Positions 41,661 through 61,944 of a stretch of DNA of 64,000 nt are shown here, one piece after another. The translations under genes were made by a program, and so were the position numbers. Below the pieces are notes generated by a model, which made no database searches, was not told the origin of the DNA, and saw nothing but the letters and a program-made list of their open reading frames with translations. Source of the stretch: Asterias amurensis (Eukaryota > Echinodermata > Asteroidea > Forcipulatida > Asteriidae); the NCBI RefSeq assembly GCF_032118995.1, contig NC_092660.1, forward strand, positions 1,627,501 to 1,691,500, read 5' to 3'. How positions within the stretch are numbered: the first letter of the stretch is position 1; each line of letters begins with the position of its first letter.

Positions 41661-42306
41661 TATTACTGACGAGGAAGTGAATGTGGAATAATACTAACTT
41701 TGATTGCGTATTCTGATGATGGTGGACGCTTTTATGACGGCAGGTAAGTCAAATTCATTTCCAATTCCATTTTCGAAAATGTATGAAACCTGTCACGAAC
41801 AGGATCGAATTCCATACTTTTGTTAAAATTAATTTTATGGTCAATGAAGAGAATCACAAGTCGTTTGGCAAAATTCTACATGTTGTGATAATAAATGCCT
41901 AAATCATTTCAACGTACATTGTGACTTGTATGTATTATTTTCCCGTGTTTTTCCCACGGTCCCATGTGTCTTATTCTTACGTACAAGGAAGACGTCCTTT
42001 GGGGAAAACCAAACAAACAACAAGCCAAACTCTATAGCACGCCCAAATAGCAACATTTGAAAACATATAATTGCTTGCTTATTGGTTTTGCCTTTTCATG
42101 ATATAATATATATTTGTAGGAAAGTTATAATCAAATGTTGCTTAAGACCCTCTGCAATGCTTGATAATTCTGATTAATCATAGTGAAGAAACATTCAACT
42201 TGTTGATGTCTGAATCTGTTTCGCTGACGTGACAGCATTGCAGTCTTCCACTAAACAATAAAGGCAATTAGCTCCAAATTAATTATTGGTTTGACTACAA
42301 ACTACG

Positions 42307-42403
42307 ATGAATGGACGCGGGATGAAAGACTGTCCGGCTGTGTCTGGATGTACTTTACTTTGCCTGCTGCTGGTCCTTCTAGTTCTAACACATTCTTCAC
42401 AAG
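42307..42403 (+). CDS. Phosphatase exon 1: signal peptide
   Basis: ATG at 42307. It encodes MNGRGMKDCPAVSGCTLLCL then LLVLLVLTHSSQ: a Leu-rich core followed by small residues. Donor CAAG|GTAAGA, phase 1. The upstream region has no longer in-frame extension that I can support. Confidence 0.85.
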
Positions 42404-45400
42404 GTAAGACGATTTATGGTTATGGATGTTTTCACCGTCGTTTGTTTCTGTCATGTTAATGTTTTTTGCATGAGATTTTGGATAGCGTGTCCCCTCACTT
42501 TATGGCAAGTGATCCAAATTATCGGCACATCGGCACAAGACTAGTCTTTGGACCCATCATCGATACTGATAATATTTGTAGAAATTATGTCATACAGTGT
42601 TGAACTAATATATTTCGTTAATATTATTTTTGGCCAAGGAATGCACCTGCAATAATAAACAAAAGCATTAGCATTAGGCCTACCACATGGAAACTATTCT
42701 GAATTTGGTTTGTAATTTATATTACATTTTTCAAAGGGGAAGTTCCTGACTTTACCTGCTACAATGTAAGACCGCTTATTCAAGTTGGTGATCATTTTAT
42801 TGGTGGCTTTAAGAGTGGTAGCTACCAAGGAGCAACAGTCACATTTAGTCGAGTATTGGATACGGGTAGTGGCAGTACTAACCTACCAACTGGTAGCTTT
42901 ATCGGACCCAACCCTTCAGTTGTTTCTACTCAGTATGTACTCCCTGCTGCCTCTGGAATAAGTAGATTTGGTGCTTATAACTGTGAATTCAGTTCTCCCA
43001 GAGTGAACATCACTACAATTCTTCTACCTCGGAATGGTGAGTGACTCACACTTCGTATTGGAATATTTTAAGGCACATCGCCTTTGGATTCGACGCTTTT
43101 GGGCCATAAAAAGCGTTTGTTATAAAACGAATCTTGTGGAAAAGATGTTATGAAAGTAAAATATAATTATTCACACAAATATTCCCCGAAATAATGTTAG
43201 TTAACGAATAAAACGGAACACAAGCGACATAAATTCGAGAGATATTTTGTATGTGTCTATATGATTGTATGTGATGTATCTGCAGCCTCATCCACCTTGA
43301 CTACGAGTGCTGGAGAGGATGTAACATTGACAATGACACAGTTATATAACGGTCCATCAACTGAGCTTATTATTAATTGTAGGTGATGTATCTCCAGCCT
43401 CATCCACCTTGACTACGAGTGCTGGCGAGGATGTAACATTGACAATGACACAGTTATATAACGGTCCATCAACTGAGCTTATTATTGATTGTAGGTGATG
43501 TATCTCCAGCCTCATCCACCTTGACTACGAGTGCTGGCGAGGATGTAACATTGACAATGACACAGTTATATAACGGTCTATCAACTGAGCTTATTAATGA
43601 TTGTAGGTGATGTATCTCCAGCCTCATCCACCTTGACTACGAGTGCTGGAGAGGATGTAACATTGACAATGACACAGTTATATAACGGTCTATCAACTGA
43701 GCTTATTATTGATTGTAGGTGATGTATCTCCAGCCTCATCCACCTTGACTGCGAGTGCTGGAGAGGATGTAACATTGACAATGACACAGTTATATAACGG
43801 TCTATCAACTGAGCTTATTAATGATTGTAGGTGATGTATCTCCAGCCTCATCCACCTTGACTACGAGTGCTGGAGAGGATGTAACATTGACAATGACACA
43901 GTTATATAACGGTCTATCAACTGAGCTTAGTATTGATTGTAGGTGATGTATCTCCAGCCTCATCCACCTTGACTACGAGTGCTGGAGAGGATGTAACATT
44001 GACAATGACACAGTTATATAACGGTCTATCAACTGAGCTTATTATTGATTGTAGGTGATGTATCTCCAGCCTCATCCACCTTGACTACGAGTGCTGGAGA
44101 GGATGTTACATTGACAATGACACAGCCTTACGGATCAACCAATGAGCTTCGATGGAGACACAATGGTGATGACGTCACTGCATGGAATGGCCAATCAAGC
44201 ATCAGTATCCTTAATGTCCAACTCCATCATGCTGGTATCTATGAATGCTTCATAGTAGGCAGGCATCATCTACAGAACCATGCACTCATGAAACTCCTGT
44301 TAAGACGTAAGTTGCCAGATTACTCTTTTTTTCTAATAAAAGAGTTTTCTTTTTTTCTGTTATGGGTTACACCGTTGACAACAAATCAACCAACTCAAAT
44401 TGGTTTTGAGATTTGTTTGCCTATCAGTTTGTATCATTGAATTTACTAGACAATTACGTTTTTGATATTTCAATTCAAATCACTTAACATGTATGAAATA
44501 TTAGGGCCTAATATTGTTGGGATCAAACTCTTTATGGCTATCTATGTCCTAAAATGTTAGTGATGAGGGCAAATTTAGATCCAAATGACACCTGTCTTGT
44601 CTTCAAACTTGTCAAACTTTTCAACCTTTTTTTTACTTGTCAGACCAGTTTCTTCCACTGCCACAAAATGTAATAATTTCTAGTCACACACTAACACTTC
44701 ACATCAAATAGAAGTGTCTAAATCTAAATTGATGGCATGACCATGATGTTCATTACCAAGATTGATCTTCGTGTGGGATTCAGTTTCATTGAATTAGTAA
44801 TAAAGACCTGTTTGATAAATTTCCTTTTCAGAGTGCTCGCCCAATAAATGGGGTCCATCGTGCGATAATGACTGTCCATTCTGCTACAATGGCGGTCAGT
44901 GTGATGATAAGAATGGTGATTGCATCTGCGCTCCAGGATTCGGTGGTTTACACTGTGACGAAACATGTAAGTTGATCAACTTATTTTGGTTGTTAAGTTA
45001 CAAATTGAGTAATTGTCAATAGATTCATGACCATCGATTATGTTAAGGATAATGGACGAGAAAGTGAGATTCGTGGATAGAATGTACGAGCTGAGGGTGA
45101 GTACAGTGTAGTCACGAATCTACACTTTTTAGTCTATTCTCTGACTTAAACTATTTCCCTCAATCTGGTTGTAGCCAGACCAATTTGAGTGGTGGGCAAT
45201 AAATCTATTTTTTTTTTATAGTCCACGAAGGGTGAGCAGGTCAACAAAATTGTTCATGTTTAATTATTTGGCCATCATTGCTGCAGTTCAAATTTCAGGC
45301 ATGATGCCAGGTTTCCAAACTGCTCATGTTATGGGGGCCTTGCATTAAGTTGATTGGCCTCGACTGTGTTCTTTTTCTGTGAAAGATACTCCCTCATTTT

Positions 45401-48400
45401 AGCTGGGTCAATGCACAGGGGACAATTTTGGTTTATTCAAGGAGAAATCTGTGCTGGGCAAAAATTGTGTGTCCTGGGCCCAATTTCATAGAGCTGCTAA
45501 GCACACAAATTTGCTTAGCATGAAATTTCTTCCTTGATAAAAATAGGATTACCAACCAAATTTCCACGTGGTTTTCAAAATAAGCAAACAACAGCTGATT
45601 TTAGTAACAAGAAATATGCAACAAATGGAAATTTTGTTGGTAATCCTGTTTTTATCAAGGAAGAAATTTCATGCCAAGCAAATTTTTGTGCTTAGCAGCT
45701 CTATGAAATTGGGCCCTTGGCAGGCCCAACATGGCTACAACACTGATGGACATCATTATAGTCATGCCAGAAGGCATTGTGTGTCCTCAGATGAAGTGGT
45801 ATAAGTTCTCTCTATGCACCTGACTCTGAAAATGTTTGTTCAAAGGACAGAGGATAGTACTCAGGGTATGAAGAGCTCAATACACACTGGTGTAATGGCA
45901 AAAACCAAATAGTATGACCTGAAAATGTTGAAATCATAGGACTGTACGTGTACCTGTATAGAAAAATCTGCCATTTCTATGGATCACTAAAAAACTTCTA
46001 CTTTTAAGAAACACTATTTTTAGAGGACTAATTTTTATTTCACTGTTAAATATGTTTGCAGTGCGGGGCAAAAACTGGTTTGGTCAGGACAGTCGGCTGC
46101 CATGTAGCAGTTCGGATCCAGTTATAGCTTGCCAGGGAAACTTGATGTGTCTTCCGGATCCCTTTGGATGTACATGTGCAGCTAGCTTCACAGGCCAGCA
46201 ATGTGAAGACGGTAGGTTTTTATCAAACTCATAATGACAATCAAAGATTAACCCTTTTTAATGTAAGTTGAGTTCTTGATAAACTATGTTTGAGCATGTA
46301 AACAATTAAAGATAATATCAAATACAGAATAAAAGTGCAAAAAACCCAATGCAAATACATGGCTTTTCGCTATCAGTCAAGACTTTAAAAAAAAAAAAAT
46401 TCTTTTGACAGTAATTGAAAACTTTTAAGAGAAAAGGCATAAACATTATAGAATGATGTCCTAGCTAAGTAACCTAACCCTCCCCAAAATCTCAAAAGAT
46501 TTTCTAAAGGAATTTTGTTATTGGAGAGGATTGAAAACTGTGGGCTAAAATAAATATTGCTCTCACTGGGTTAAGCATACACATCTTATATAAGTAAAAG
46601 TCTGAACCTTTTGATGCTGAGTTAACATAGAATGGAGGATCATGAATGATTTAGGAGAGTCTGTAGCCAATAAGGCACCATGGTTTAGGGGTTATGACTG
46701 GTCTTTCTTTGGCTGAAAAAGCAAAAATGAAAATTTACAACCATTAAGTCTATTCAGTTTCTGCTATTTCATCCCACTTTTAATTGTAATTTTTTGTTAT
46801 CTTATACTTCCTGTTCAGCACTTAGAAACCCTGTATTAAGCGCTATATAAATGCTTTATTATTATTTCCTCTTAGAGCAGGCAAGGCCATTTTAATTTTC
46901 TTGCAAAAGCACTTTCATTAGGAATTGTTAAAGTTTATGGGAAACTTTCGAAGAGGCATCAATGTCAAAAACAGGGCAACAAGCCAAGGCTATGTGGTAT
47001 TAATCTAATTCCAGGCCTTGAAAGTACAGAAATATTTTCCTTCAAATAAGCAAGGAACAATCTCCCTGATGTTTTATGTTCCTTTTAGGAAAAATAAATC
47101 CTCATATTTCATACTTTCAAATGGTTTACTTTAATTGTGTTTTTTTAAGAAGTAGCAATAGTAAACTGGAAGGTGGTTCCATGTTCAAGTAGAAGGAATT
47201 AGATTTGGAACAATGAGAGCTAACTTTATTTTCATATGCAAGCCAAAAGACAAACACAGTCAGTCAAAATTATTATATTAACTTGTCAAATGGATTGCCT
47301 TATTTTCTTTTACAGATTGTGAAGACGGATACTTTGGTGCTGGTTGTAAGCTAAAATGTAACTGTGCGGGTAATGCAGTGTGCGACAAGGGAAATGGCAC
47401 ATGCGGAAGTGGAGTAAATTGTACAACTGGCTTCACAGGAGAAAATTGTCAGAGTAAGGAAGTATAAAACTTATTGTGATACATGTCAGCTTGTTATTTA
47501 TGTCCAGATTCCTATTTCAATTTCAAAGGCAGGCAGTTGAATTCACATCTGGTAGTCTGTTGATTTGTGGCTCTGGATGTTTTAAACTCTTCACATTGGT
47601 AATCAAAAAACATTTTTATGCCCATGCCCACTGTTATCTTTTACAACTTTTTAGAGCCTAGAAGTTGTCCCGGGTGTTAACCAATGTCTTATGTAGACAA
47701 GTCCAGTAGAAGTCTAGGCATGTAAACACATTGTCTGATATGAAATGTATGTTTATATTTAGCTCTCTTTTGAAAATTGTTGATATTAAACTGAAAATAA
47801 AGAAACAAAATTCACAGACCCAATAAATTATCCTTTGCTTTTCAAACATTCATTGATCTATTCTGATAAAAGAAAACAAACTCTCGACTCTTTCATGCGC
47901 CAACCTGTCGCTAGCATCAGTTTTAAATCCTTTCAGAAAACTAGTTGTCAAACAAAAGATAAAGATCACACCACCACACAGTTTTCAGAATTGGAAAGAG
48001 GACACTTGATGGTGCTGTTGTGACCTACTTTTGGGTGGTCGCCATTTTCAACAAACAAATAAACAATTAATGTGCATGAAAGGGTTAAGGAGTGTGTTAA
48101 TTCTGGATCTGGCAAAACAAGGTCCTTTGCGTCCAGTATGATGTCAGTGGCATAACGCAGTCAAGAGATAACATATTCAATAAATGTAAATTGTCAGTCT
48201 TTTTCAGGAAAAAAAAACAAAAAAAGGTCAAGAAGAATATGTCTCAATCTTTGATCCTCAAACACAGTTGCGGTACACAAGACGTCATATTGGGTGTGTC
48301 AATTTTAATTTCATACTTTCTGCTGAAAATAACGAAAATTTAGACATTTTACCAACAATTCATATCGCCTTGTAAAATGTACTTTCTGTTAAAATCTGTC

Positions 48401-51400
48401 ATTCTACACTATTTTTAAATATAGTTTGTCCTGATGGTCGGTTTGGAGTTAACTGTGTGCACAGATGCCATTGTGAAAATAATGCAGTTTGTGACAAAGG
48501 CTACGGAACATGCCCAAATAATGTGATGTGTGCAAACGGCTTTAGAGGTGATAACTGCCAAAGTAAGTATGGAATTTTATTTACTTTGTTTCCAGCTGAC
48601 CATCGGTCCTTTTCCCTTTCCTTACATAAACATGATGAAAATGACTTGTTATTGAGACAAACTACATGTATAGTCATGCAGACAGTAATTAGTGACTTGA
48701 TATAATAAAGTCAACTATAATAAGTTATTGTATTCTCATCCACATCAGTGATCAGCAGAGAGTTTGTGATTTTACAGCTCGTAAACTTGCTGACTACTTG
48801 ATCAGCATTGCGGTGTCAATTATCATAAGTTACAGAAAAAGGAAATTAATTTGGGGGTTGCCCAAAGTAAATTGGCTAGAACCTTGAGATCTCCGGATTA
48901 ACACGACGGTGCTCAACTGAGCTATACATGAGGCATTCCATCCAACACAACATTCAAGACAAACGTGGGTGCCTACTGGCGCTATAAAGTATTCTTGGCT
49001 ATTATTCATTAGGCTAGTCTAAACATGTTCTCTTATGTAAGGGTATTTAAACACTGAAGTAATGAAAGCACAGTTACTTTTTATTTTTTATTCGAAACTT
49101 TACCAACGTTTTCTTTCAGACTCTTGCCCGTATGGCCAGATTGGTCTGTTTCCAGACTGTACAGCGTGTTATGGTAAGGTCAGCACTTGAGCCTCAACAT
49201 TAATTGTATCCACTCTTATACGAAATACAGGGACCGGTGAAGCCTATACCTAAAAGTTTTTGTCCATCCACATAGACGAGTTTATAGTGTTTGGCACGTC
49301 GTGGCAGAGTGGTTATTAAGAGCACCGGAATCAACCTCTGCTTCTGGTCGGCAGAGTGTGGGTTCGAGTCCTGGTTGTTATAGACGATGTGACCTCTGAC
49401 GTCACTCGGAAACGATTACATGATTCACGCGCATACCGCCGGGCAAAACCTTTGTGTTTTGGCAGCCAGCTAGAAAGTGTATGCAATCTTACCATGACTA
49501 TACGTGTCTTTTTGCCCGGCGAAACATGACGTATATAATCACATCGTTTAAATGGCATTGCTTTGTCCTTCAGATGGGACGTAAAGCCGTAGGTTCCGTG
49601 CGTACCAAATGTAGTAAAAGACCCCATAGTGCACATAAAAATACAATGTTGAGATTAAGGTTCGCTCTAGTGTCTGGCAGTGAGTTCTTTTACTCATTTT
49701 GAAGGTTGTACTAAAACAAATAAGGAAGAAGAAAAAGGCGAAGAAGCTCTGAACCACGATTCAAAATAATAAAAACCAAATATACTAACTTTTGGTTGTT
49801 TAATCAGATTGTTACTGACCCTAAAAGCTGGCGAACCGTGACAAACACTTGACATAACTTGGGAGAAATGAAAGAAACATATAAGGCAGGAAATGCAAGG
49901 AGAAGGTGAACATCGCTATCAATTGTACTTTAAGTGCATTGATCATGTTGTTGAAAAACAACTTTTTTGCCTAACATATACAGTGTGGTAGATCAATCTT
50001 TGCAGCCGGCACTTGCCACTACTTGTTAGGAAATGTAAAGTTAAAATAAAGTTGAGACAACTTCTGGAAAGGGAGGGAGTAAAACAGATTTATGGTGGTT
50101 AATCTTTTCAGTTCCTGTATCAGTGATATATGAAGTCAGCTCTGAGCAAGACCCCAGCAGAACCATTACATGGATAAAAGCTCCTCAAAACAAGTGTCCT
50201 GTTATCGACTATGCGATACAGTATCAACTGGTTACGAGAGATCTTTGCCAAGAGATGGATGGTGAATTTCAAACTCTACACAACACAACAGCGAGACAGT
50301 CTCCTTTCCCACATCCTGATTCATTACCCAATTCAATATACATGGTTCGTGTGTTTGCCAGGAATGAGGCAGGACTTGGGGTACCTCAGACTGAGGACTA
50401 TATCGAACTGACAACACATGAGAAAGGTATTCCTGACAGGAAAAGTACTTTTAAAGTGATGAGAAATGCTACACTTTTATCTGAACTCAGACCTTTTTTT
50501 AACACAAAATTATCTTATACATAAATAATTCATGCTCTTCTGATTTTCAACTTTAGTAATACAGTTATCTAAGGATACTGTTCTCAGAAGACTGTTGAAA
50601 CATATAAGTAAAACCCCAAAGGTTACTGATGACATGTGGAAATGCCATTATAATTCACATTCCTGTGAAAAAAAACAAATTATTCTTACTGGGTACAAGA
50701 AGCCCTTTTTAGTCAGGAATCGGAGTTAGTTTTTCGTCGACGATGTAATAAAAATGAAGCCGCTGGACTTGGCTTACAAGATCTTTGTATAAGACACATG
50801 GACTTGTCAACGTGCGTAAGCTTCGGAGACCAGAGCAGCACAAACTATGTTACAAATGTCACAGAAAGTAATGTTCTCAGACAATTTAGAGGAAACCTAC
50901 GGCATGCAGAAGGAATACTTCTGCAAGAGCTACTTAGCAAGAGCTACTTTCCCTAAATATGTTGGTTTCGCAAAGAAACCAACGCTTAAAGGTGAATGTG
51001 GTTCTCTCTTGAAACATTTTTTTTTAAATACCGGACTTTGTAAATTAATCCAAGTAAGATGACATCTAACAGGATTGAGTAACATCTGTTCAATATTCTA
51101 ATCATTTGTATTTGAAATCTTTCTAGTAAGGAAGTCAATGATCTTGAAAATGACTAGCACTTTCACCCGTAGGCATTCAGTGTATATAAGTGTAGAGAGA
51201 CGATGTAGAATACATAATTATTATACAACTTGTTATCAATTAACACAGTGATTCTAGTACATTCTGGTCATCATCATGACAAAGATTAAGTTTTCAACAG
51301 AAGGGTATAAAAGCAAATTTTAAAGTTTTGTGTTTAAATTATTATTTTAGAGCCGACGGGATCACCAACAGATTTCAAGACTACTTCAACAACGAAGCAT

Positions 51401-54400
51401 AGTGTGGCATTTAGCTGGAGTGAAATACCATGTGGTCAAAGAAATGGTGTGATAACTAAATACAGAGTGAGTCTTCATAGCAGATTGTTTAAATCAAAAC
51501 AACTTTTGTTTCAAATTAGTACACATTCAATTATTTAAAACCTCAATTAAGTTTACTTGAGTGTAAGTGTTTGTGAAAATTTTCAGTGTCTTTTTGTTTC
51601 CCATTTTCAAAAAAATGTACAGCTCTCATACAGGGTGCTGGACAAACCTTATGACACCAGCTTTAGTCCAAACAGCTCATTTCAATCGGTTGATATAGAA
51701 CCATCAGATATGCACAGCAACATCAGTGGTTTAGAACCAACAACAAAATATGATTTCCGACTAGAAGGTTTCAACAGTGCTGGCGTTGGAGAGGATGCAA
51801 CATTAGAGGCATTTACTGAAGTTGAGACAGGTATTGTGGGACATCATTCAGTTATCAAAATTACCTTAAAATGGTGAATGCTAAATTTTTACTTGAACAT
51901 CTAAAACCGTTTTAAGACCGGTGTTACGAATTTTGTTTTGTCGACGTAAAGTCATATGAACTACAATGTCAACTGTTTCAATGTTTCCAAGTCACCAAAA
52001 TTAAAATTCGTATTTCAAAACGAAAATATATATTTGTTTTATTTCTTTGTTGGCTATGTCAAAGCCTAACTGTGTCACATTCTTGTTTGGGAACGTCTCC
52101 AAAGTTTGACATTATTCTAGGCGCGAAAGAACATTCCCTCTTTTGACTTTTGAGATGCTCCGTTATGTTCTTTTTTGGAAAGAGAATCTCCCCAAGGTAC
52201 ATATTTTCCTTGACTTTACAGATCTTCCTGCTCCGACTCAGCTATCCGGAAAAGATATTTCACAGTTGACATCTTCCACAGTCACTATAGCTTTGAGTCT
52301 TCCATCCTCGTCAAAGTACATCACGTAAGTTGAAAACATGCAAACAATTTTTAACCTGTATAATTTTCATTCATCTTTTCTCATTGATTTTATGTGTTGT
52401 GTATAGTGAAGCATCATTTTCGGTTTTTAAAATTGCCTCTGTTTGGTCTTGAACAAAATTGTCAAAGAAAATATCAACATTGTTACTGAAACAATGAAAA
52501 CTGAAATTTAAATACCTACTCATGATGTTGTTTCTATATTGTTTAGAGGCATACAAGTTGGTGTACAGCGGGTTAAGACAGTCGCTAGACGGGACACCAG
52601 GGGATCAAGGTACCAACGATCCACTGAACCAACTCTTGACTATGTAGCTGCAGAATTACCTAAGAAGGATCTCCCTGCAACATTCACTGTGGGTGACGGA
52701 GAAACAGAGGGAAACAAACCCCTGGAAGGCAACACTCAGTATGACATCTACCTTGGATCAGTCAGTAGGATTTCTCAATCGGTAAGCCTTGAATTTTACT
52801 TCTTGTGTGATTATTTTAACAATGACAAAATGACCTCTCGCAACAAAGGGCCATGTGCATGCTGTTGTGTGTGTACTCTCTGACACGCTTGCCAATAAGA
52901 AGAGTGCTGGCTTCAGATTTCTCCCGAAGACAATCAGGCATACTGATCGAAACGTTGAGTCGCTAACGTCAAGTTCTAGGCATTGAAAGCATGTAAACAT
53001 GCTTTGAAATTTGAATTTTTATGGAAGTTAGATAACAGCCTAAAGATGTGTTGTTTTGATTTTTCTCTTCATTTTTTTTTAGACTTATGCCGTTAAGTGG
53101 AGTGAGCCGCTCAGAGTTCAAGGTAATTTACTGTTTTGTGACAAGTTTGCTTAAATTCAACTGCTTAAAAACTTCACCTTTAATCATACTGTAAAATGTT
53201 GTTTTGTTTCAACCAGGGGTCTTCAAAGTAAGACATGAAGGGAACAATAGTCTGGTTCCTTTATACTTAAGTAAGAATAAAATATATTATTCATAAAGGG
53301 CACCATCCACAAATGGGTACATACAACGATGCACATACAGATGCATGTCATTTGATTAGTGTTACTGCTGCATACGTCACTACATAACTTATTATAGGAG
53401 TCCTAAATGGATATTTATAGGACGCTTTGTTGTGTACTTTCTTTAAAAATGTAAACGATCTTTGTTTGTCAGTGCCACAAAGTGCAAGCCCACCGATAGC
53501 TGCTTTTGTGGTTCCATTGATGCTGATTGTCCTGATTGGTATTGTGGTTGCTGTCGTCTTCAAAATAAGGTAGTTATTAAAGTCTCAATTGAGTAATTTC
53601 TGCGCTCCCTCGAAATTTTTTCGTCACCTCCAAATATTAATTTGATCCCCCATAATGTTGTTTTGAGGGAACGAAAATACATATCACGGGAAAGAAATTA
53701 CTTTTAATATTTTAATTGGTTTCTTACAACTAGTATTTTAAGGGAAAACAAAAATACTTCGAGTAACGCAAAAATATTTCGAGGGGTCAAATTAATGATC
53801 TTTTCAATTAAGAAGCTCTGTAGATCTCAGCATTCGGCTGCAAAGCATGTGATAAACCCTTCTTAATGCGTTAATGAACCAATCAATGCAATTAATCTTT
53901 GCTTAGTGAGAGGTTAATTTTGTATATGTTGTTTATTTTCCGTACCTTTGACAGGCGAAAGAAGAGGCTTAGACATCTCTACGCTGTAAATGGTAGGTCA
54001 CAACTTACAACTCAGTAAACTTCCCTTTTATTTAAATCAAAATTTTGTGCAGGTTTGTCTGAAAGGATGAGAATATTAGACTTGAATTTAAATTCAGGGC
54101 TTTTTACAATGTATGACTATTATTTTCTTCATATTACAAAGAAACCCTGCCCATTCTTCTATTCTGTAGTGCTAAGAATAGCTACCCTTAAACTCGCTAA
54201 AATCGAGAATTACAGGAGTTGCTAAAAAGTTGGAATGTAGTCATGCTCACATCTTAACAATTACATCCTAGTTACTGAAGTTTGGATTTAATTTTGTCGT
54301 TGACAGACACGAACAATGGAGATGTGTTAAAGCATCTAAACTACTGAAGATTGGTCAAATATTACATAGATTTTAAATAAGTGCTGCACCTCCTCTTCTG

Positions 54401-57400
54401 TTGACAACTTCAGTTAAGTTTGTTATCAAATGTTTGTTTTCATTTGTTTTAACAGCGGGAGTGCGAGTAGGTCATGATAAACTTTCTACAGGACTAGAAA
54501 ATCCTGACGTTGATGTCACCTATGATGTTATTGCTGAAACCATAACCAATGTGCCAACCATTGCACCATCCGCTCTACCAGCAACTACACCAGCCACTGC
54601 ACCAGCCAATAAACCAGCCACTTCACTGGCCACAGCACCAGCCAGACCGAAGCCGGTTAAGGAGAAGAAGCAATTTACGGCTTCTTTCCCGATTCCGTTG
54701 TCAGAGTTGAAAGATTATGTCAGCAAGAAGAAGACGGAAACGTACAAAGAAGGCAATGGGTTTCTGTTTGACTATGAGGTGAGTTATGATAATATAATTT
54801 ATATATATTATAATAACAAGATGTGAATTTGTTTATTCATTGGGTTTATTGCCTTTACCAATACACGCTAATGATGACGACGAGCAAGATGATTGAGAAT
54901 AAGAGTTTAATTTTTGTATTTATTTTCAATATTTAGAGTTTGCCCGATTTCGACCGTCATTCATGTGAAAGAGCAAAGGATGACAAAAACAAGGAGAAGA
55001 ATCGCTATGTAACCGTCATTCCATGTGAGTTAAAAATGATTATTACTTATGATCAACATTGTTTTCATACATCATTCTGAAATGTTCGATCTCAAATGAG
55101 GTGTTGGCACCCCAAGTGAATTTAGGCACCATAGATCTCCATGCCTCTCTGTCCTCAACTGTTCAAATTAATGGCCTTATACATTTATTGGATTCCTAAC
55201 TTTTTGTCCACCACAGACGATTTTTCTCGTGTTGTGCTTGAGAAACTACCAGATCAACCAGACTCCGATTATGTAAATGCAAGTTACATAGATGTAAGTT
55301 AATCATAATTACTGTTTCTAATCTAAAGAATCGATAATAGACCACTCCAGTTTTACAAAGAACTGAATCAAGTTCGGAAAACTTCCCAATTAGTTCTGTT
55401 CCCTGTCCGTCTGTAAAGATAAGTTGATGGACCGCTGGAGTAGAAGAGGACTCCAACCACTTATGACGCAACAACTTATTAATTAGTAAAGACTATTTGA
55501 AGGCGCCACAATCCACAAAATTAAGGTGCTTATGGCGCAAAGACCAAATCGATAAGCCACAAGCTGGATTAAACAATGATACAGTAAATAAAGCAAAACT
55601 TCCCCGAAAGAGTGTTTAAAAAAAAAACAGTACAAAAATCTAGATTAAATTCGTTCAACCAGCCCAGAAAAGGACTGTTTTAAAAATACATCTTTGGAAT
55701 GCAAATGATGTAACCACTGTCGTAATACTTCCTTCTTCTCATTTCAGGGTTTCAATGAACCGAACAAATACATAGCCAGCCAAGGTAAAACAAGTTAATA
55801 AACAAACTTATGCAACTGTTCTTAGAGGTCAGAACACTAAAAAGTTAAAGGAACTATAGGCCTACAAACAATTTGTAAAAATGTGGCCGAGCAGCTTAGC
55901 ACAAGAGTCTGTCGTCAGAGTGTGGATTTAAGCCTCAGTCGTGGCAAAAGTTGCCTGAGATGAAATTATTAATTTTTAGAAGGCAAATACTACACTTTAT
56001 GGGGTAAATTTCTTCATTTTGGTATAAAATATGGATCGGCAGCTCACTGAATATCTCATTATTATTTTATGAATCACAATTTCAGGTCCAAACAAGGCTT
56101 CTGTTTGTGATATGTGGAGGATGATATGGCAGGAGAATACCACTAAGATTGTCATGCTCACCAACCTACAAGAAGGAGTCAAGGTAATTTAAGATGCATT
56201 GCTGCTGGGACAATGAGCTCACATAATTGTTTTACACCAAAAGTAGATTGACACCCTGTCTTTATCTGCAAGAATAAATATTGGTACTTGGTTTTCAGAA
56301 ACAGTGATAAAGTTTGAAATTTAATGTAGGTGAAAGGTGGTTATGGACGGGGATTGATCTAGGCTAAAGGCTACTCTCTGGCTTAAATCACGTGCCTCAA
56401 AGTGTGACGTCAGATGTTCTGGCTACACCAATAGCAGCCGTCATCCAACGGTCTGCCTCATTTTACCTCAGCGAGCGAGGGCGCTATGTTAAGTCAAATG
56501 CAAAGGGTGCCTGATAAAGGGGGACACTAAATTTTATCTCGGAGCAGTCGGCGAAGCCCACCTTGCTCATGTTTTTTGCCAGATGGTTTTCATTGGTTTG
56601 CTCTTTTCTTTTTTAATCTTTCAGGAAAAATGTGAGAAATATTGGCCAGACAAAACAGCACAGTACGGCGATTATGTTGTCACTTTGAAAAAAGAGGAAA
56701 CACACGCAGACTACATTGTCAGAGACTTCATAATGACTCTGAAATTAGAGGTATGGTAATGAATTACAACCTTTGCAAATTGCCCCTGCTGACAGTTAAT
56801 TTGGGTCTGATCTTGCATTTTCTATACACTGTGGATGCTGCCGTTTATTTAAGTTCAAAATTCTACTTTCACAATACTTTAGGATGAATGGACCAGACAA
56901 GTTCGTCAGTATCATTTCACAACATGGCCTGATACGGCCTTGCCTGATGATCCAATCAAAGTGGTGAACTTTGTCAAAATGGTCAAGTCCAGCTACAACC
57001 AAAAGAATGTTGGTCCAATGGTCGTTCATTGCAGGTTGGTACTTTTGTGATTGCACATTACTTAAAGACACTGGATACTATTGGTAATTGTCAACGACCA
57101 GTCTTCTCACTTTTGTACCTCAACATATGCATAAAATAGCAAACCTGTGTAAATTTGAGCTCAATTGGTCGTCGAAGTTGCGAGATAATAATGAAAGAAA
57201 AACTCCCTTATCACATGAAGTTGTGTGCTTTCAGATGCTTGATTTCGAGACCTCAAATTCTAAATCTGAGGTCTCGAAATCAAACTCGTGGAAAACTACT
57301 TCTTTCTCGAAAACTATGGCACTTCAGAGGGAGCTGTTTCTCACAATGTTTTATACCACCAACCTCTCCCCATTACTCGTCACCAAGAAAGGTTTTATGC

Positions 57401-60400
57401 TAATAATTATTTTGAGTAATTACCAATAGTGTCCACTGCCTTTAAGACAAACAGAAAAAGTAAAACCGGTCAGACTCACAGTGTTTCAGATATCTGTAAT
57501 AGTTTAGGCGCAATCATTGGAAAATCAAGAGCACTTTTGAGAGACAGGCTATGCTGAAACCATTGGAGCCGTGTTTTTCTTTTAAACAAGAATTTGGACT
57601 GGAGAGAGAGGGAAGGGCGTTGAATGAGTGGTAGGGGATGTATTTCTGTCTGTTGGATTTTGGTTATCAAGCAGTTGGTTATAGCGCCTGGAAATAAGTT
57701 AAGCAAGAAAACAGGGTTGTATTTGAACAGAGGCTAAGACTCATCTAAATGTTAATTCACACAATGGTCATGCCTGTAGTTATTCATGTTTTTTGTAGCA
57801 CTGGAATCGGTCGCACTGGTGTGTTTGTGGTTTTGGACGCCATGTTGGACCAGGCAAAAGCAGAAGATCGAGTCGATATCTGGAACTTTGCTTGCGGCAT
57901 GAGAGACAAACGGATGAAGATGATTCAATCACCGGTAAATTAGATACATTAATTTATCTGAGGTCATTTTTTGTTCTGTCTAGTGTTTTCCCGTTTTGTC
58001 CAATGTTTTCTTGTTTAGTGCCCAAAACCATAAATGAAACAATCACATTGGAGAAAGGCTTATCAGAGTAGATGCTGCCCAAATTGTTTACAAAAAGTAA
58101 ATTAGAACATCAATTTATCTGAGGCCATTTGAACAAGTTCTGTCTAGTGTTTTCCCGTTTTGTCCAATGTGTTCTCGAATAGTGCCAGAAACCAGAAATG
58201 AAACAATCACATTGGAGAAAGGCTTATCAATGTAGATGCTGCCCAAATGTTAACAAAAAGTAAACAATAATTTTGTAGAGATTGACAAATGACGTTTGCA
58301 TAATTATAGTTTAAGCTTTCACAAACATCACTTTTGTTAGGCTTTTAGTGCTTGATATCAACGTGAAAGTTGTAAACTTTTGTATCACAATGTGCTAAAA
58401 CCGATTTTCTTATTCAGGAGGTGTTTAAAACTAGATCTCTTAACATCTAGACCACCGTAGGTTTGGTGGATTTACACAAAAATGGTCTTGGCCATAGTGC
58501 CTCTTCAAAAATATCTATTAAATTTAAATATTTTTCAAGGAAAAGGCCCTTCGTAAAACGATTTTTTTGTATTAATCAAAACAGGCCCAATATGAGTTTA
58601 TCTTTGAAGTCCTGATTGAGACGTTCCTTTGTGGTGACACCAGTTTTAAACCGAAACAGATTACCACCAAGCTGACTGCTTTGAAGAAAGTCACAAAGGG
58701 CAGTAGGAAGACAGGACTGCAACTAGAGTTTGAGGTGACAGCTCTTTTTATCAATTTTGTTTCATTTCATTATGTTTGTATTTCTCAATTGAGGAGTCTG
58801 GAAATTTATATTCCAACATTTCATTAAAAGTGTTTCGTCATGCATAAATAATGTTATGTCTTGGTTCCATACCCTTATACTGTATGTAGGAAGCACTGGC
58901 AAAGTCTCCTTATTAAATGCAATTTTAAACATCTCCCTGCTTAATTTTGTACAAAATCTCCCCGATTACGAGATGCAAATGATGTCATCTCTGACGTAGT
59001 CCTGAGGTAAGTGGAATAAACATTCAATATTCACCTAATCATACTATTTTCAAATCATTCTTACTGTCTTTAAACAGACCCTGAATTTGGTCACCAATAT
59101 TCCGGACCCTGTCAAATTTAAAGGAGGTCGGCAACCAGAAAACGTTGAGAAGAACAGATTTCCAGACAAACTACCAGGTGAGGTTTTATTCAGTTTATAA
59201 ATAACCTCTCATGACAAAGCTGTTGTATGTTTCTTTGCAAACTAATTTTTTCTACCAAATTAAAGCTATAGTTATTCTGCGATCACTTTGAAATAAATGC
59301 ATTCAGTCAATGAAGTCAACTTTATTTATATTCTTTGAACTAATGCTGTTACTCTACCCGAGGGTGTTGGGGTAAGTTCTTCAACCACACAGTTGCTAAT
59401 TTAAAGCTTGGTTGAACCAGCTCAAAGCATGCTCTGTTTAGGACATCCTTGTTGGATCAAACAGTGAAATTAATGTCACCAACATTTTATTTTTCAAGCT
59501 GATCAGTTCCGACCTCACTTGATGACATCAGGACAACATGGATCCAACAACTACATCAATGCCTGCTTTCTTAATGTAAGTCATCATACTTCAGTGATTT
59601 GTTGAGTTCCTTTTGATAAACCAAACCATCACAGAAATATTTCCATCTAATAGCTCACTGATTCTAAAGTTCATACCAGTACCAATCCCCCAGAGAAATA
59701 TTTCCATCTGAAAACTCACTGTTTCTAAAGTTCATACTACTAGCAACCCTCAACAGAAATATTGCATCTGAATTTAAAATTCACTAGTACCTATTTCAAA
59801 TGCAGAAAAACAAAATAATTTATTTAAGTTTTTTGGGTTCTGTTTTGCAACTCCTTGGGAAAAAAAGACACACTTTACGTAAAACCTCACTGGACCCAAA
59901 TTACCTCGGCCGTCACGGATCAACTTTCTGAATTTACAGAGTCCTAGCTCCAAAGGAAAGTACATTGCTACCCAAATGCCCTTACCCCACACCATCAGTG
60001 ACATGTGGAGAATGGTTTATGACTACAAGTCAACTTGTATCGTCATGTTGAACACAGTAAACAAAAAAGACCCGGTAAGTAGAACATTTATTGTTGCTTG
60101 GAAAATCAATTTCGAAAATCGACTTTATTTGATATGAAATAATTATTGTTCTTTTCAAAACTGTTTTTATTGTATTTGTAATTTTTTATTTTTCAATTTA
60201 TTTGAAACGAAGTTAAGCCATTAATTATTGTTTACTAAAGCTAAAAGTACACATAAATTGTGTTATTATCTGCTAAAAGTGATTTGTTCATTAGTTTGAT
60301 TAAATTTAGAAATTATCAATATCTCTACCAATTTGTCTTCCCCACAGACATGTGTTGAGTATTGGCCAGAGAGAGACTCTGCATCATGTGGCAATCTGAC

Positions 60401-61944
60401 AGTCACTCTACAGTCAACTGATAAAGTGGGACCAAACATCATTATACGCTACCTAGCCCTGGATGATGATCAGGTACAATGCTATAATTAATCATTGAAA
60501 CTAGGGCTGTCTAAGTAGGTCACTGTGGCTGTGACTTTGGCTGTAGCTAATGGTGTTACTTCCCTGGTAGATATACAGAGTACCAGGCCCAGAATTCATA
60601 TGATTTGATTTCTTGTAAAAACATTTGATTTAAAGCAAACTACTAAAGAGGACGGAACAAATTCATTATGTCCGAGGAGGTAAAAGCCTCTGTTGCAGTT
60701 CGTCTTGATTATGGTGTCCCTTCAAAACTTTCCAGCAATTTTAAGATTGTCCATTGTGAAGTGTATAATGTATAATGTCCCTATCTTGAAAATAAAGGAC
60801 AGTTCACTTCAAGCCTTTATACCTGTTTGAAAGGCAGAATCGTTTAACTCACTGAAGCTATTCCAGGTTGCATAATACATTAATGGTGCCTTGACGTCAA
60901 TGCCATACTTGGGGCATACCTACAATGTCATTACAAAATCAAACAACAAGTTTTGTTTGCACTGACTGACTTTCCAATTCCAGAAGTTGTAATTTTTTGT
61001 TTCATACTTGTCATTGATACACAGGAATCCCGTCTGATTTGTCACCTTCAACTACTCAACTGGCCCGTTGGTGGCGTACCATCGTCACCAAAATCCATCG
61101 TGGAGTTGGTGACAGCCGTTAAAGAGTGGCAACTCGAGCATAAAGACGACCGAATTATAATTCAGTGCATGTAGGATGTTTGGTCATTTCCTTCTGCTAG
61201 TTTTCAATAAAAACGCATTCCAACAAAACTCTGAAAAATAAATGTTGTAACTTTAAGCTGGCTCATTGTTTTGAATGAAAAGAACAAAGTTTACGTTTTG
61301 CGGTTTGTGACAGTAACTTGATAATTTTTCAACTATTTTCAACGATTTTCAGTCAAGATCCAGATATAAATATAAACAGAGAAGAAACATCTCTAAGAGT
61401 TGCTGTAAGAACATGATAGGATGGTAGAATTATTTGTGTTTGACACAGAACAAATCCCAAAACGTTTACTGTGTTCACGACAACTCAAAATTGTTTTATT
61501 ATTTCTTGTTTGACAGTGACGGTGAGGGCGCTAGTGGATCATTCTGTGCTCTCCTTAACGTCATAGAGAGACTGAATATTGACAATGTGGTGGATGTCTT
61601 CCAAGAAGTCAAGAAACTCAGAGTCTCATGTCATAGATTGGTGCAGTCACAGGTAAGCCGAGTTTGATATCTCAAGGGTTGATACCGCTGTTATCATGCC
61701 GTGCGTTTCAGTAATGTTAGCCTAAGTAAATGCATGTAAAGTCTTCATCAAAAAGTGCGCACAACATTTTGTGCAACCTGAATGAATGATTCTTCATTCA
61801 GAGGACTTGAAAATTAAGTTACAAATGAAAAACCAAATATTGCATTTTGTATTATCGTTTTATTTTGTTCAGGAGCAGTACGAGTTGATATACGAGGCCA
61901 TATGGATGCATCTGGGCGCTGATGTCGTGTATGCAAACATTTAG
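42307..61944 (+). CDS. Receptor-type tyrosine phosphatase with Tie-like ectodomain (32 exons, complete)
   Basis: Single-pass receptor predicted to dephosphorylate tyrosines at the plasma membrane. The 32 exons total 4395 nt, 1464 residues plus TAG, all phases consistent. Order: signal peptide 1-32; Ig-like 33-132; Ig-like 133-216; EGF-like 217-261, 262-311, 312-357, 358-403; Cys-containing hinge 404-421; FN3 422-526, 527-634, 635-760; membrane helix about 769-790; basic stop-transfer 793-797; Pro/Ala/Thr juxtamembrane segment about 838-873; phosphatase D1 about 885-1201; D2 about 1202-1464. The Ig-EGF part resembles Tie receptors (NKWGPSC at the Ig/EGF junction, MCLPDPFGCTCAASFTGQQC in EGF2). 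D1 has KNRY, WPD (1070-1072), HCSTGIGRTG (C1105) and QYEF, so it should be active. D2 has WPV and QCIDGEGA (C1395, Arg replaced by Ala1401), so it should be inactive. A strong unpaired donor at 41743 (GGCAG|GTAAGT) hints at a 5' non-coding exon. Confidence 0.93.
42737..43036 (+). CDS. Phosphatase exon 2: first Ig-like domain
   Basis: It encodes EVPDFTCYNVRPLIQVGDHF through GISRFGAYNCEFSSPR. The Cys pair (TC...YNC with a preceding GAY) is the Ig hallmark. Its place before the second Ig domain and EGF repeats matches the Tie order, but similarity of this exon itself is weak. One NIT sequon. Confidence 0.85.
43271..44054 (+). repeat. Seven tandem 112-bp units copying the acceptor and 5' part of the next exon
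   Basis: GTGATGTATCTCCAGCCTCA (G for C in the first) starts at 43271, 43383, 43495, 43607, 43719, 43831 and 43943, and finally at 44055, the true Ig exon. Each later unit is preceded by ATTGTAG, an acceptor. Reading through a unit in the exon frame gives TGT AGG TGA, a stop. The unit boundary TGTAG|GTGATG resembles both an acceptor and a weak donor. Confidence 0.95.
44055..44306 (+). CDS. Phosphatase exon 3: second Ig-like domain
   Basis: It encodes DVSPASSTLTTSAGEDVTLT, then ELRWRHNGDDVTAW, ISILNVQLHHAGIYECFIVG and MKLLLR. The W, the L..V.L..AGIY.C pattern and the following Arg plus EGF match the Ig domain that precedes the EGF repeats in Tie. The first half of the exon is the source of the 112-bp array upstream. 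Confidence 0.88.
44832..44966 (+). CDS. Phosphatase exon 4: EGF-like domain 1
   Basis: CSPNKWGPSCDNDCPFCYNG, GQCDDKNGDCICAPGFGGLH and CDET. Eight-Cys laminin/MEGF-type EGF with WGP..C, as in the first EGF of Tie. Phase 1-1. Confidence 0.93.
45397..45750. repeat. Dispersed repeat split by a MITE (see 4380-4560)
   Basis: The left half runs to ...TTGTGTGTCCTGGGC and the right half from CCTTGGCAGGCCC to CTACAACACTGATGG. In the uninterrupted copy these halves are continuous. Phosphatase intron 4. Confidence 0.6.
45476..45716. mobile_element. Palindromic MITE, family 3, nested in another repeat
   Basis: GGGCCCAATTTCATAGAGCT to ...CTATGAAATTGGGCCC with inverted GAAATTTCTTCCTTGATAA blocks; close relative at 8466-8706. 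Confidence 0.85.
46062..46211 (+). CDS. Phosphatase exon 5: EGF-like domain 2
   Basis: NWFGQDSRLPCSSSDPVIAC, then MCLPDPFGCTCAASFTGQQC. The CLPDP(F/Y)GC(T/S)CA block is a distinctive feature of the second EGF of vertebrate Tie receptors. Phase 1-1. Confidence 0.93.
46640..47035. repeat. SINE-like sequence with a GCGCTATATAAATG tail, followed by a dispersed repeat
   Basis: GTCTGTAGCCAATAAGGCAC (tRNA-like A-box region) to TAAGCGCTATATAAATGCTT and (ATT)n at 46836-46870. The GCGCTATATAAATG tail is common to tRNA-derived SINEs of marine invertebrates. Right after it is the repeat also seen at 25660. Phosphatase intron 5. Confidence 0.55.
47316..47453 (+). CDS. Phosphatase exon 6: EGF-like domain 3
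   Basis: CEDGYFGAGCKLKCNCAGNA, VCDKGNGTCGSGVNCTTGFT, GENCQ. Compare G.YG..CKL.C.C in the third Tie EGF. Phase 1-1. Confidence 0.92.
48425..48562 (+). CDS. Phosphatase exon 7: EGF-like domain 4
   Basis: CPDGRFGVNCVHRCHCENNA, VCDKGYGTCPNNVMCANGFR, GDNCQ. Same length (138 nt) and Cys spacing as exon 6, with NAVCDKG shared, so a local exon duplication is likely. Confidence 0.92.
48865..48960 (-). repeat. tRNA-derived SINE fragment
   Basis: On the minus strand ATAGCTCAGTTGAGCACCGT (A box) and AAGGTTCTAGCC (B-box-like) about 40 bp apart, with TTAATCCGGAGATCTCAAGG between; the same core as 13060-13110. Phosphatase intron 7. Confidence 0.55.
49120..49173 (+). CDS. Phosphatase exon 8: short Cys-containing hinge
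   Basis: NSCPYGQIGLFPDCTACY, 18 codons, phase 1-1. It reads like the first third of an EGF-like module. Acceptor tttcag, donor ATG|GTAAGG. Confidence 0.8.
49290..49720 (+). mobile_element. tRNA-derived SINE with conserved central domain
   Basis: The tRNA-like head has the A box TGGCAGAGTGGTTATTAAGA (49302-49321) and the perfect B box GGTTCGAGTCC (49361-49371). The body contains CAGATGGGACGTAAAGCCGT and AGTAAAAGACCCCATAGTGC (49572-49640), resembling a central domain seen in SINEs of several marine animal phyla. Phosphatase intron 8. Confidence 0.65.
50112..50426 (+). CDS. Phosphatase exon 9: FN3 domain 1
   Basis: VPVSVIYEVSSEQDPSRTIT, then WIKAPQNKCPVIDYAIQYQL, IYMVRVFARNEAGLGVPQ. The W, Y.IQY and Y.VRVFARN.AG pattern is a fibronectin III fold. 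Phase 1-1. Confidence 0.9.
51351..51830 (+). CDS. Phosphatase exons 10-11: FN3 domain 2
   Basis: Exon 10 is 51351-51466 (EPTGSPTDFKTTSTTKHSVA, FSWSEIPCGQRNGVITKYR). Exon 11 is 51623-51830 (LSYRVL..., NISGLEPTTKYDFRLEGFNS, AGVGEDA). The intron splits the domain between the C and C' strands, as is common in receptor phosphatases. Confidence 0.9.
52222..53122 (+). CDS. Phosphatase exons 12-14: FN3 domain 3, membrane-proximal
   Basis: Exon 12 is 52222-52324, exon 13 is 52547-52781, exon 14 is 53083-53122. It contains DYVAAELPKKDLPATFTVGD, then NKPLEGNTQYDIYLGSVS. The AAEL...LP.TF.VGD...N.PL....Y.(I/V)Y pattern is what membrane-proximal FN3 regions of receptor phosphatases show, rather than those of Tie. 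The basic RRDTRGSR stretch may be cleavable (speculative). Confidence 0.88.
53473..53569 (+). CDS. Phosphatase exon 15: transmembrane helix
   Basis: VPQSASPP, then about 22 hydrophobic residues (IAAFVVPLMLIVLIGIVVAV plus VF), then KIR. Donor AG|GTAGTT is weak but phase fits. Confidence 0.9.
53955..54778 (+). CDS. Phosphatase exons 16-17: juxtamembrane region
   Basis: Exon 16 is 53955-53992 (RKKRLRHLYAVN, basic stop-transfer). Exon 17 is 54456-54778. Exon 17 holds a Tyr-containing acidic stretch (ENPDVDVTYDVI), a degenerate P-A-T repeat (PATTPATAPANKPATSLATA, about residues 847-866), a basic patch, and the start of D1 (IPLSELKDYVSKKKTETYKE). Confidence 0.9.
54937..58734 (+). CDS. Phosphatase exons 18-25: catalytic domain D1
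   Basis: Exons: 54937-55024, 55217-55293, 55748-55784, 56086-56183, 56625-56750, 56883-57034, 57799-57934, 58585-58734. Motifs in order: KNRYVTVIPYDFSRV, DYVNASYIDGF, YIASQGP, DMWRMIWQ, KIVMLTNL, EKYWPD, FTTWPDTALP (general-acid Asp1072), VVHCSTGIGRTGVF (nucleophile Cys1105, Arg1111) and AQYEFIFEVL. All catalytic loops are intact. The active-site loop is split after HC(AG|C) by a 764-bp intron containing a family 1 MITE. Confidence 0.93.
57062..57445. mobile_element. Palindromic MITE, family 1, full-length, inside the active-site intron
   Basis: TTAAAGACACTGGATACTAT to ...GTCCACTGCCTTTAA. It lies in the intron separating the HC of the D1 signature from STGIGRTG. Confidence 0.9.
57951..58264. 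repeat. Two tandem copies of a 161-bp intronic unit
   Basis: AATTTATCTGAGG starts at 57951 and 58112. GTTCTGTCTAGTGTTTTCCC and AACAATCACATTGGAGAAAG are shared exactly. Phosphatase intron 24. Confidence 0.9.
59078..61944 (+). CDS. Phosphatase exons 26-32: degenerate second phosphatase domain D2
   Basis: Exons: 59078-59177, 59499-59575, 59940-60074, 60348-60473, 61025-61170, 61517-61652, 61873-61944 (stop TAG 61942-61944). Motifs: EKNRFPDKLP, NYINACFLN, YIATQMPLPHTISDMWRMVY, CIVMLNTV, EYWP, LLNWPVGGVP (Asp to Val1362) and IQCIDGEGASGSF (Cys1395 kept, His to Gln, Arg to Ala1401). The usual DNYINA and KGYIA.Q are still recognisable, so the fold is probably kept while catalysis is lost, as in many receptor phosphatases. 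Confidence 0.92.
59630..59772. repeat. Tandem repeat of about 70 bp, about two copies
   Basis: CAGAGAAATATTTCCATCTG / CACAGAAATATTTCCATCTA followed by CTCACTG.TTCTAAAGTTCATAC, then a third partial CAACAGAAATATTGCATCTG. Phosphatase intron 27. Confidence 0.85.

What the first reader, a model, noticed from the sequence alone, without database searches (positions are those of the whole stretch)
42307..61944. Receptor tyrosine phosphatase carrying a Tie-receptor-like ectodomain
Seen: signal peptide, two Ig-like, four EGF-like, three FN3, one membrane helix, two phosphatase domains, in one continuous frame across 32 exons. Known: Tie1/Tie2 are receptor kinases with Ig-Ig-EGF x3-Ig-FN3 x3, and their second EGF has the CLPDP(Y/F)GC.C block found here in exon 5; exon 4 matches the Ig-to-EGF1 junction (KWGP.C). 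The membrane-proximal FN3 and the cytoplasmic part instead look like receptor phosphatases. Inference: exon shuffling (all ectodomain exons 2-8 are phase 1-1) placed a Tie-type ligand-binding region on a phosphatase. If it binds angiopoietin-like ligands, it could oppose or tune a Tie kinase in the same animal. I cannot tell whether it is undescribed.
Basis: partly seen in the sequence, partly recalled or inferred. Interest (0 to 1): 0.82.

Follow-up and report, generated by a model that had tools for sequence, protein, structure and literature searches.

The report
Sea-star Tie-headed receptor phosphatase array
A sea star makes phosphatase receptors whose outer part resembles the vertebrate blood-vessel receptor Tie2, the outermost domain appears to have been swapped between neighbouring gene copies, and related predicted proteins seem to carry shared outer parts on either a phosphatase or the opposing kinase.

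Summary
The 32-exon, 1464-aa model is open, and a family profile matches solved Tie2 from Ig1 to EGF3 (E 1e-71; next unrelated 7e-13). The cytoplasmic half is a two-domain receptor phosphatase, D1 motifs intact, D2 degenerate. The genome is Asterias amurensis.

Three additions. (1) Tie-type heads on receptor phosphatases are a family: sea stars, sea urchins, a sea cucumber, spiders, ticks. (2) In sea stars, kinases and phosphatases share ectodomains: three predicted pairs are 47-98% identical per 60 residues up to the membrane and 12-46% after it; phosphatases as one clade are rejected (p about 1e-45). The kinases are known here only as annotated proteins. (3) The window gene is one of five tandem copies. 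Its Ig1 segment matches copy C and its EGF segment copies D/E, introns included; the switch lies at a 112-bp repeat array carrying the Ig2 splice acceptor.

Not supported: angiopoietin binding (contact strand missing) and the direction 'phosphatase captured a Tie head'. The window's own ectodomain has no close kinase twin (best 30%). Ligand and function are unknown.

The parts
42307..42403 (+). exon 1: start codon and signal peptide (residues 1-32)
   Evidence: found in tandem copies B-E
42737..43036 (+). exon 2: Ig1, the variable head (residues 33-132)
   Evidence: family profile aligns with Tie2 Ig1; groups with copy C, not D/E
43262..44125 (+). 112-bp tandem repeat array; units mostly end in the Ig2 splice-acceptor sequence and begin with the first ~36 codons of Ig2; lies at the mosaic breakpoint
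44055..44306 (+). exon 3: Ig2 (residues 133-216); lacks the angiopoietin-contact strand of Tie2
44832..44966 (+). exon 4: EGF1 with the KWGP.C junction (217-261)
46062..46211 (+). exon 5: EGF2 with CLPDPFGC.C (262-311)
47316..47453 (+). exon 6: EGF3 (312-357)
48425..48562 (+). exon 7: EGF4 (358-403)
49120..49173 (+). exon 8: half EGF (404-421)
50112..50426 (+). exon 9: FN3 (422-526)
51351..51830 (+). exons 10-11: FN3 (527-634)
52222..53122 (+). exons 12-14: membrane-proximal FN3-like domain of receptor-phosphatase type (635-760)
   Evidence: Fn3_PTPRU below cut-off; sequences; tree
53473..53569 (+). exon 15: transmembrane helix (761-792)
53955..54778 (+). exons 16-17: juxtamembrane segment
54937..58734 (+). 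exons 18-25: PTP domain D1, catalytic motif HCSTGIGRTG at 1104, WPD at 1070
59078..61944 (+). exons 26-32: PTP domain D2, degenerate (QCIDGEGASG, WPV), and stop

Best explanation
The gene (copy A of five in tandem, Asterias amurensis chromosome C13) encodes a single-pass receptor phosphatase: Tie-type Ig1-Ig2-EGF head, FN3 stalk, phosphatase-type membrane-proximal domain, one active-looking and one inactive-looking PTP domain. It belongs to a sea-star receptor pool in which Tie-type ectodomains have been joined to either a phosphatase or a Tie-like kinase more than once. In the window's array the outermost Ig1 head has been exchanged between copies, with the switch at a 112-bp repeat array just before the Ig2 exon; nearly every unit supplies a splice acceptor and the start of Ig2, so a crossover there keeps the frame. 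SHOWN by sequence: anatomy, family membership of the head, the mosaic and its breakpoint, and ectodomain sharing at the level of predicted proteins. INFERRED: that recombination in the array did the swapping; that the head binds a cell-surface or soluble ligand that differs between copies; that binding clusters or relocates D1, which removes phosphate from nearby receptors, plausibly Tie-like kinases; that the family serves recognition, perhaps in coelomocytes.
For: Tie2 profile match about 1e-71 over Ig1-EGF3. Cytoplasmic half closest to PTPRA (482.6 bits). Intact D1 and altered D2 motifs. Five tandem copies A-E in 264 kb. Ig1 tree {A,C}|{B,D,E} and EGF tree {A,D,E}|{B,C}, each 100/100, each rejecting the other's grouping at AU p about 2e-5 to 3e-5. 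DNA left of the array: A-C 72-96%, intron 1 of D and E unalignable; right of it: A-D/E mostly 94-100% to 48.4 kb, B/C introns unalignable; array 83-99% in all four comparisons. B and C 99-100% identical in most 500-bp steps from EGF3 on, head step 74%. Kinase/phosphatase pairs P0172/P0144, P0184/P0048, P0147/P0118; phosphatases not one clade, AU about 1e-45; kinases not one clade in the membrane-proximal domain, AU 0.002; Fn3_PTPRU above cut-off in kinases P0172, P0184, P0147; P0172 kinase domain nearest Tie2 among single kinase domains (277 bits; Ret 229, FGFR1 224). A Tie-2-like kinase and an F-like receptor phosphatase were both reported in A. rubens coelomocytes by proteomics (PMC13409769, passages).
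Against: The window's own ectodomain has no close kinase partner: best is P0178, 30%. No kinase exon was found in the 264 kb array with five kinase queries. Kinase genes were never seen in DNA, because the genome search was answered once only. Ig1 dN/dS within groups is 0.6-1.0 by counting, which fits relaxed constraint as well as diversifying selection. Gene X (P0003) has a single repeat unit, so the array is not universal. No expression, ligand or enzyme data for the window gene. It is unconfirmed that the phosphatase of PMC13409769 is P0065. The tree used a simple model and carries a long-branch warning (P0178).
Confidence: 0.62

Rival explanations
1. Ordinary tandem expansion of an adhesion-type receptor phosphatase whose Tie-like head is an old domain combination; head differences are drift and random conversion, with no recognition or pairing function.
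For: Tie-headed phosphatases also in spiders and ticks; Ig1 dN/dS not above 1; the window's type has no kinase twin.
Against: Two divergent Ig1 types (dS about 1.1-1.35) sit on nearly identical bodies, and the switch falls in the repeat array; three separate kinase/phosphatase ectodomain pairs.
Confidence: 0.3
2. The kinase/phosphatase pairs are annotation errors: gene prediction joined phosphatase ectodomain exons to a neighbouring kinase.
For: Kinase models are predictions from repetitive chromosomes; their loci could not be inspected.
Against: The same kinase architecture is annotated in four sea-star species (Patiria, Acanthaster, A. rubens, A. amurensis); paired kinase and phosphatase ectodomains are not identical (P0172/P0144 84% over 710 aligned residues, P0184/P0048 77% over 1720), so they are separate loci; ectodomain and kinase distances agree among 13 chosen kinases (Mantel r 0.93, 0 of 2000 permutations as high).
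Confidence: 0.12
3. The array mosaic is an assembly artefact (uncollapsed haplotypes or misjoined repeats).
For: B and C are 99-100% identical over most of about 14 kb including introns; the breakpoint is a tandem repeat, a classic misjoin site.
Against: A, D and E differ by up to about 20% along their bodies, too much for one locus; a distant array-bearing gene, Y (P0004), lies 0.6 Mb away. Copy D equals NCBI protein P0001 in 28 of 28 exons tested, but that is the same assembly and so no independent control.
Confidence: 0.15
4. A receptor that binds an angiopoietin-like ligand and directly opposes the Tie kinase on that ligand.
For: Overall Tie2-like head and annotated Tie-like kinases on a contig of the same length as the window's chromosome.
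Against: The contact strand Phe161-Glu169 of Tie2 faces a seven-column gap, with no Phe161 or Pro166 equivalent.
Confidence: 0.08

Closest known systems
Tie1/Tie2 (TEK) receptor tyrosine kinases
   Same: Ig1-Ig2-EGF1-EGF2-EGF3 order and sequence, including KWGP.C and CLPDP(F/Y)GC.C
   Different: no kinase, no third Ig found, a fourth EGF and a half EGF, phosphatase-type membrane-proximal domain, angiopoietin-contact strand missing
Two-domain receptor tyrosine phosphatases (PTPRA/E, LAR family, PTPRK/M/T/U)
   Same: tandem PTP domains, active-looking D1, degenerate D2, phosphatase-type membrane-proximal FN3-like domain
   Different: Tie-type Ig/EGF head; the subfamily of the PTP domains is not settled (two-domain chains: PTPRA first; single-domain chains: PTPRK 273, PTPRT 268, PTPRA 264 bits)
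NCBI-annotated Asterias amurensis 'receptor-type tyrosine-protein phosphatase T-like' (P0001 = array copy D)
   Same: same architecture; 91.9% identity to the window protein
   Different: different Ig1 type; the name does not mention Tie
Vertebrate activating/inhibitory paired immune receptors (recalled)
   Same: near-identical ectodomains on opposite signalling tails, as in P0172/P0144
   Different: here the tails are themselves enzymes, and the window gene has no known pair
VE-PTP (PTPRB), which regulates Tie2 (recalled; titles and abstract starts seen)
   Same: a receptor phosphatase functionally tied to a Tie kinase
   Different: VE-PTP is an R3 type with FN3 repeats and one PTP domain (recalled), and no Tie-type head

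Membership tests
Tie receptor family | Tie-type Ig1-Ig2-EGF1-3 block | tested here: met
Tie receptor family | third Ig before the FN3 stalk | tested here: not met
   no Ig match between the EGF exons and the FN3 domains, up to E 1
Tie receptor family | cytoplasmic tyrosine kinase | tested here: not met
   two PTP domains
Tie receptor family | angiopoietin-contact strand (Phe161-Glu169) | tested here: not met
Receptor tyrosine phosphatases | tandem PTP domains with intact D1 catalytic motifs | tested here: met
Receptor tyrosine phosphatases | membrane-proximal domain of Fn3_PTPRU type | tested here: inconclusive
   window 18.7 bits, cut-off 24.7; relatives P0144 and P0048 above cut-off, P0118 below it
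Receptor tyrosine phosphatases | catalytic activity | not testable with these tools
   sequence motifs only
R2B subtype (PTPRK/M/T/U), as NCBI's 'T-like' name suggests | N-terminal MAM domain (recalled as defining) | tested here: not met
   no MAM match up to E 1
Paired activating/inhibitory receptors | shared ectodomain on opposite enzymes | tested here: inconclusive
   met by three pairs of predicted relatives; not met by the window gene, best kinase 30%
Paired activating/inhibitory receptors | common ligand and co-expression | not testable with these tools
   only the indirect proteomics of PMC13409769 (passages)

The most novel reading that the evidence does not exclude
Sea stars run a recognition system of paired receptor enzymes: one chromosome holds a pool of Tie-type ectodomains mounted on either a tyrosine kinase or a tyrosine phosphatase, so that one ligand can be read as add or remove phosphate. 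The outermost Ig heads are diversified by crossovers in a splice-acceptor-bearing repeat array, while the enzyme halves are kept nearly uniform.
Probability: 0.35. Interest if true: 0.93.

Novelty: new variant of a known kind. Interest (0 to 1): 0.78.

Why it matters
Receptor kinases and receptor phosphatases are normally treated as separate families with their own ectodomains. Here a Tie-type head sits on a phosphatase in echinoderms and chelicerates, and in sea stars the same ectodomain type appears on both enzymes. That reopens where the Tie ectodomain came from and offers a natural case of opposite enzymes under one sensor. The array gives a concrete, in-frame way to swap a recognition head: a repeat made of a splice acceptor plus the start of the next exon.

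Tried and rejected
Generic Ig/EGF similarity: rejected. Direct angiopoietin binding: not supported. My own 33-exon model: exon 53217-53270 dropped. My early idea that the phosphatase-type membrane-proximal domain is present in amphioxus Tie: no Pfam match in P0010 up to E 0.001, dropped. 'Phosphatase came first': the block tree is midpoint-rooted with long branches in it, so polarity is left open. A kinase twin of the window's own ectodomain: none found among the 52 kinases compared. High dN/dS of exon 6 (0.197/0.018): one short exon, not tested further. Structure prediction was not run: the spliced window protein is not contiguous in the DNA, and its closest relatives exceed the 1200-residue limit (P0001 1483, P0005 1204).

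Rows dropped: of 264 fetched proteins the trees used chosen representatives. Block tree: 69 proteins, of which P0026 (no EGF2 motif) gave no row and P0235 only its second block; 73 rows. My motif rule labelled P0005, P0032 and P0098 'neither', although Pfam lists a PTP domain for them; they were not counted in the 8 kinase/phosphatase changes. Membrane-proximal tree: 35 rows, those in which my pattern found the domain; vertebrate Ties and most chelicerates are not in it; 13 ectodomains of the F5/8C type. The dN/dS table left out exons under 22 residues.

Literature: ten searches were charged. No title listed is on Tie-headed phosphatases or shared kinase/phosphatase ectodomains; three listings were capped (20 of 47 papers, 15 of 948, 15 of 523). 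Passages were read in PMC10815196, PMC8294587, PMC11788884, PMC13409769 and PMC10855541. The sea-urchin phosphatase survey (Byrum 2006) is not held and was not seen; it may bear on novelty.

Full report
WHAT WAS CHECKED. Exons 2-8 are all phase 1-1. Pfam gives two PTP domains (2.5e-138), two FN3 stretches, and an Ig and a membrane-proximal domain below their cut-offs.

IS THE HEAD REALLY TIE-LIKE. Residues 1-421 against all solved structures: Tie2 at 1.1e-36, next unrelated 9e-10. A profile of 11 family ectodomains aligns with Tie2 residues 2-320, that is Ig1, Ig2 and EGF1-3, at about 1e-71; the next unrelated chain is titin at 7e-13. The cytoplasmic half matches PTPRA best (1.7e-143), then PTPRE and the LAR group; among single-domain chains PTPRK, PTPRT and PTPRA are close together, so the subfamily is open. 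D1 keeps HCSTGIGRTG and WPD; D2 has QCIDGEGASG and WPV, so D1 is active-looking and D2 not.

WHOSE GENOME. The window is G000:C13:1627501-1691500 in a 491,506,623-base assembly. C13 is 21,203,961 bases, the contig length given for the Asterias amurensis proteins P0001-P0004, and array copy D equals P0001 in 28 of 28 exons tested, against 12 of 28 for copy E and 8 of 28 for the window copy A. I conclude A. amurensis. PTP exon matches are concentrated on C13: 94 of the 150 rows listed, counted by hand, at some 25 loci, on a chromosome holding 4% of the genome (candidates were capped, and matches are exons, not genes).

HOW WIDESPREAD. With the window ectodomain, 31 proteins passed, 13 of them with a PTP domain: sea stars, one sea urchin, one sea cucumber and one spider. 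The sea-cucumber protein P0026 lacks the EGF2 motif, and a brittle-star hit, P0019, carries no PTP match. With the spider's block, 210 passed and 120 were listed, 26 of the 120 with a PTP domain: spiders, ticks, echinoderms and three unnamed records; the listed kinases were vertebrate, amphioxus, one sea star and a few unnamed records. So Tie-type heads on phosphatases are a family.

KINASE AND PHOSPHATASE SHARE ECTODOMAINS IN SEA STARS. Searching with the membrane-proximal and kinase part of Patiria P0133 found many sea-star Tie-like kinases, several tagged with the phosphatase-type domain Fn3_PTPRU; three with a Tie block and that domain (P0172, P0181, P0184) carry the contig length of C13 (blocks by pattern). 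Fn3_PTPRU is above Pfam's cut-off in kinases P0172 (30.0), P0184 (36.4) and P0147 (26.9), and in tick phosphatase P0046 (30.1); below it in phosphatase P0118 (21.7); and not listed up to E 0.001 in spider phosphatase P0020, snake Tie2 P0025 or amphioxus P0010. Identity per 60 residues: kinase P0172 against phosphatase P0144, 78-98% to residue 840, 47% in the step before the membrane, 20-44% after; P0184 against P0048, 57-98% to residue 1680, then 12-46%; Patiria P0147 against P0118, 59% in the first 60, 72-93% over 61-900, 50-64% over 901-1140, then 17-31%.

TREES. Ectodomains of 13 chosen proteins: P0172 (kinase) is sister to P0144 (phosphatase), and P0118 (phosphatase) lies inside the Patiria kinases; one clade of phosphatases is rejected, AU about 1e-45 (quick tree, simple model, with a long-branch warning for P0178). 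In the membrane-proximal domain (35 rows, one very long tick branch), one clade of kinases is rejected, AU 0.002. In the Ig2-EGF block (73 rows; quick tree) the kinase/phosphatase label changes at least 8 times. The PTP parts group by receptor type. Ectodomain and kinase distances agree among 13 kinases (Mantel r 0.93), which argues against random annotation joins. The P0172 kinase domain is nearest Tie2 among single kinase domains (277 bits; Ret 229, FGFR1 224); a two-stretch EGFR construct ranks higher by summing.

THE WINDOW'S OWN ARRAY. In 264 kb around the window there are five complete copies, A (window) to E, all on the + strand, with no kinase exon found. Module by module they disagree. 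Ig1 pairs A with C (dS 0.18) and separates it from B, D and E (dS 1.1-1.2); Ig2-EGF4 pairs A with D and E (dS 0.04-0.06) and separates it from B and C (0.64-0.66); membrane-proximal, juxtamembrane and PTP parts are close in all pairs (dS 0-0.15). Nucleotide trees of the two parts are each 100/100 and mutually rejected (AU 2.3e-5 and 2.7e-5). B and C are 99-100% identical over most of the stretch from EGF3 onward, introns included, yet 74% in the head step. There is further mosaic structure downstream: A against D falls to 83-91% over 50-56 kb and returns to 97-98%.

THE BREAKPOINT. The 112-bp repeat at 43262-44125 lies between the Ig1 and Ig2 exons. Left of it A matches C, with intron 1 of D and E unalignable; right of it A matches D and E, with introns of B and C unalignable; the array itself matches in all four. 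Unit starts counted, the true exon included: A 8, B 6, C 6, D 13, E 7; two more relatives on C13: Y (P0004) 9, X (P0003) 1. Units are mostly preceded by TTGATTGTAG, the acceptor of the Ig2 exon, and start with its first ~36 codons. A crossover inside the array therefore keeps a usable acceptor and frame. That the array promotes crossovers, rather than merely being the only alignable stretch, is inference.

WHAT IT MAY DO. Established for the families (recalled): a two-domain receptor phosphatase works through D1, with D2 regulatory, and clustering or relocation by ligand changes its access to substrates. The Tie2 strand Phe161-Glu169 contacts angiopoietins, Phe161 and Pro166 dominating (PMC8294587, passages). 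In the window that strand is replaced by a seven-column gap. The ligand is thus unknown. A Tie-2-like kinase and an F-like receptor phosphatase were both reported in A. rubens coelomocytes by proteomics, whose authors note counterbalancing activities (PMC13409769, passages); the A. rubens 'F-like' protein P0065 has a Tie-type head, but I could not confirm it is the one detected.

VERDICT. The stronger result is head swapping in the array and, at the level of predicted proteins, the sharing of ectodomains between opposite enzymes.

Noticed in passing
window 47316-47453 (EGF3, exon 6) and tandem copies: Mean dN 0.197 against dS 0.018 over ten copy pairs, unlike its neighbours; one short exon, may be a selection signal or chance.
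   Followed up: no
protein P0178 (Asterias rubens Tie-like kinase): Catalytic motifs read HRDLCAGN and DLGLAD, so this Tie-headed kinase looks catalytically impaired.
   Followed up: no
proteins P0015, P0016, P0017, P0102: Tie-type ectodomains with neither kinase nor phosphatase domain listed (acorn worm, sea urchins, A. amurensis), with tyrosine-bearing short tails in the urchin proteins.
   Followed up: partly
proteins P0020, P0068, P0092, P0094: Several chelicerate Tie-headed phosphatases also list an LCCL domain, in P0020 at residues 42-121; P0046 does not.
   Followed up: no
window 53217-53270: In-frame exon-like stretch with usable splice sites between exons 14 and 15 that the annotated paralogue P0001 lacks; possible alternative exon or decoy.
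   Followed up: partly
window 6424-6920, 22610-22944, 33516-34309: Other tandem repeats of 122-226 bp outside the gene; no family exon was found outside 42300-61945 with 11 protein queries.
   Followed up: no
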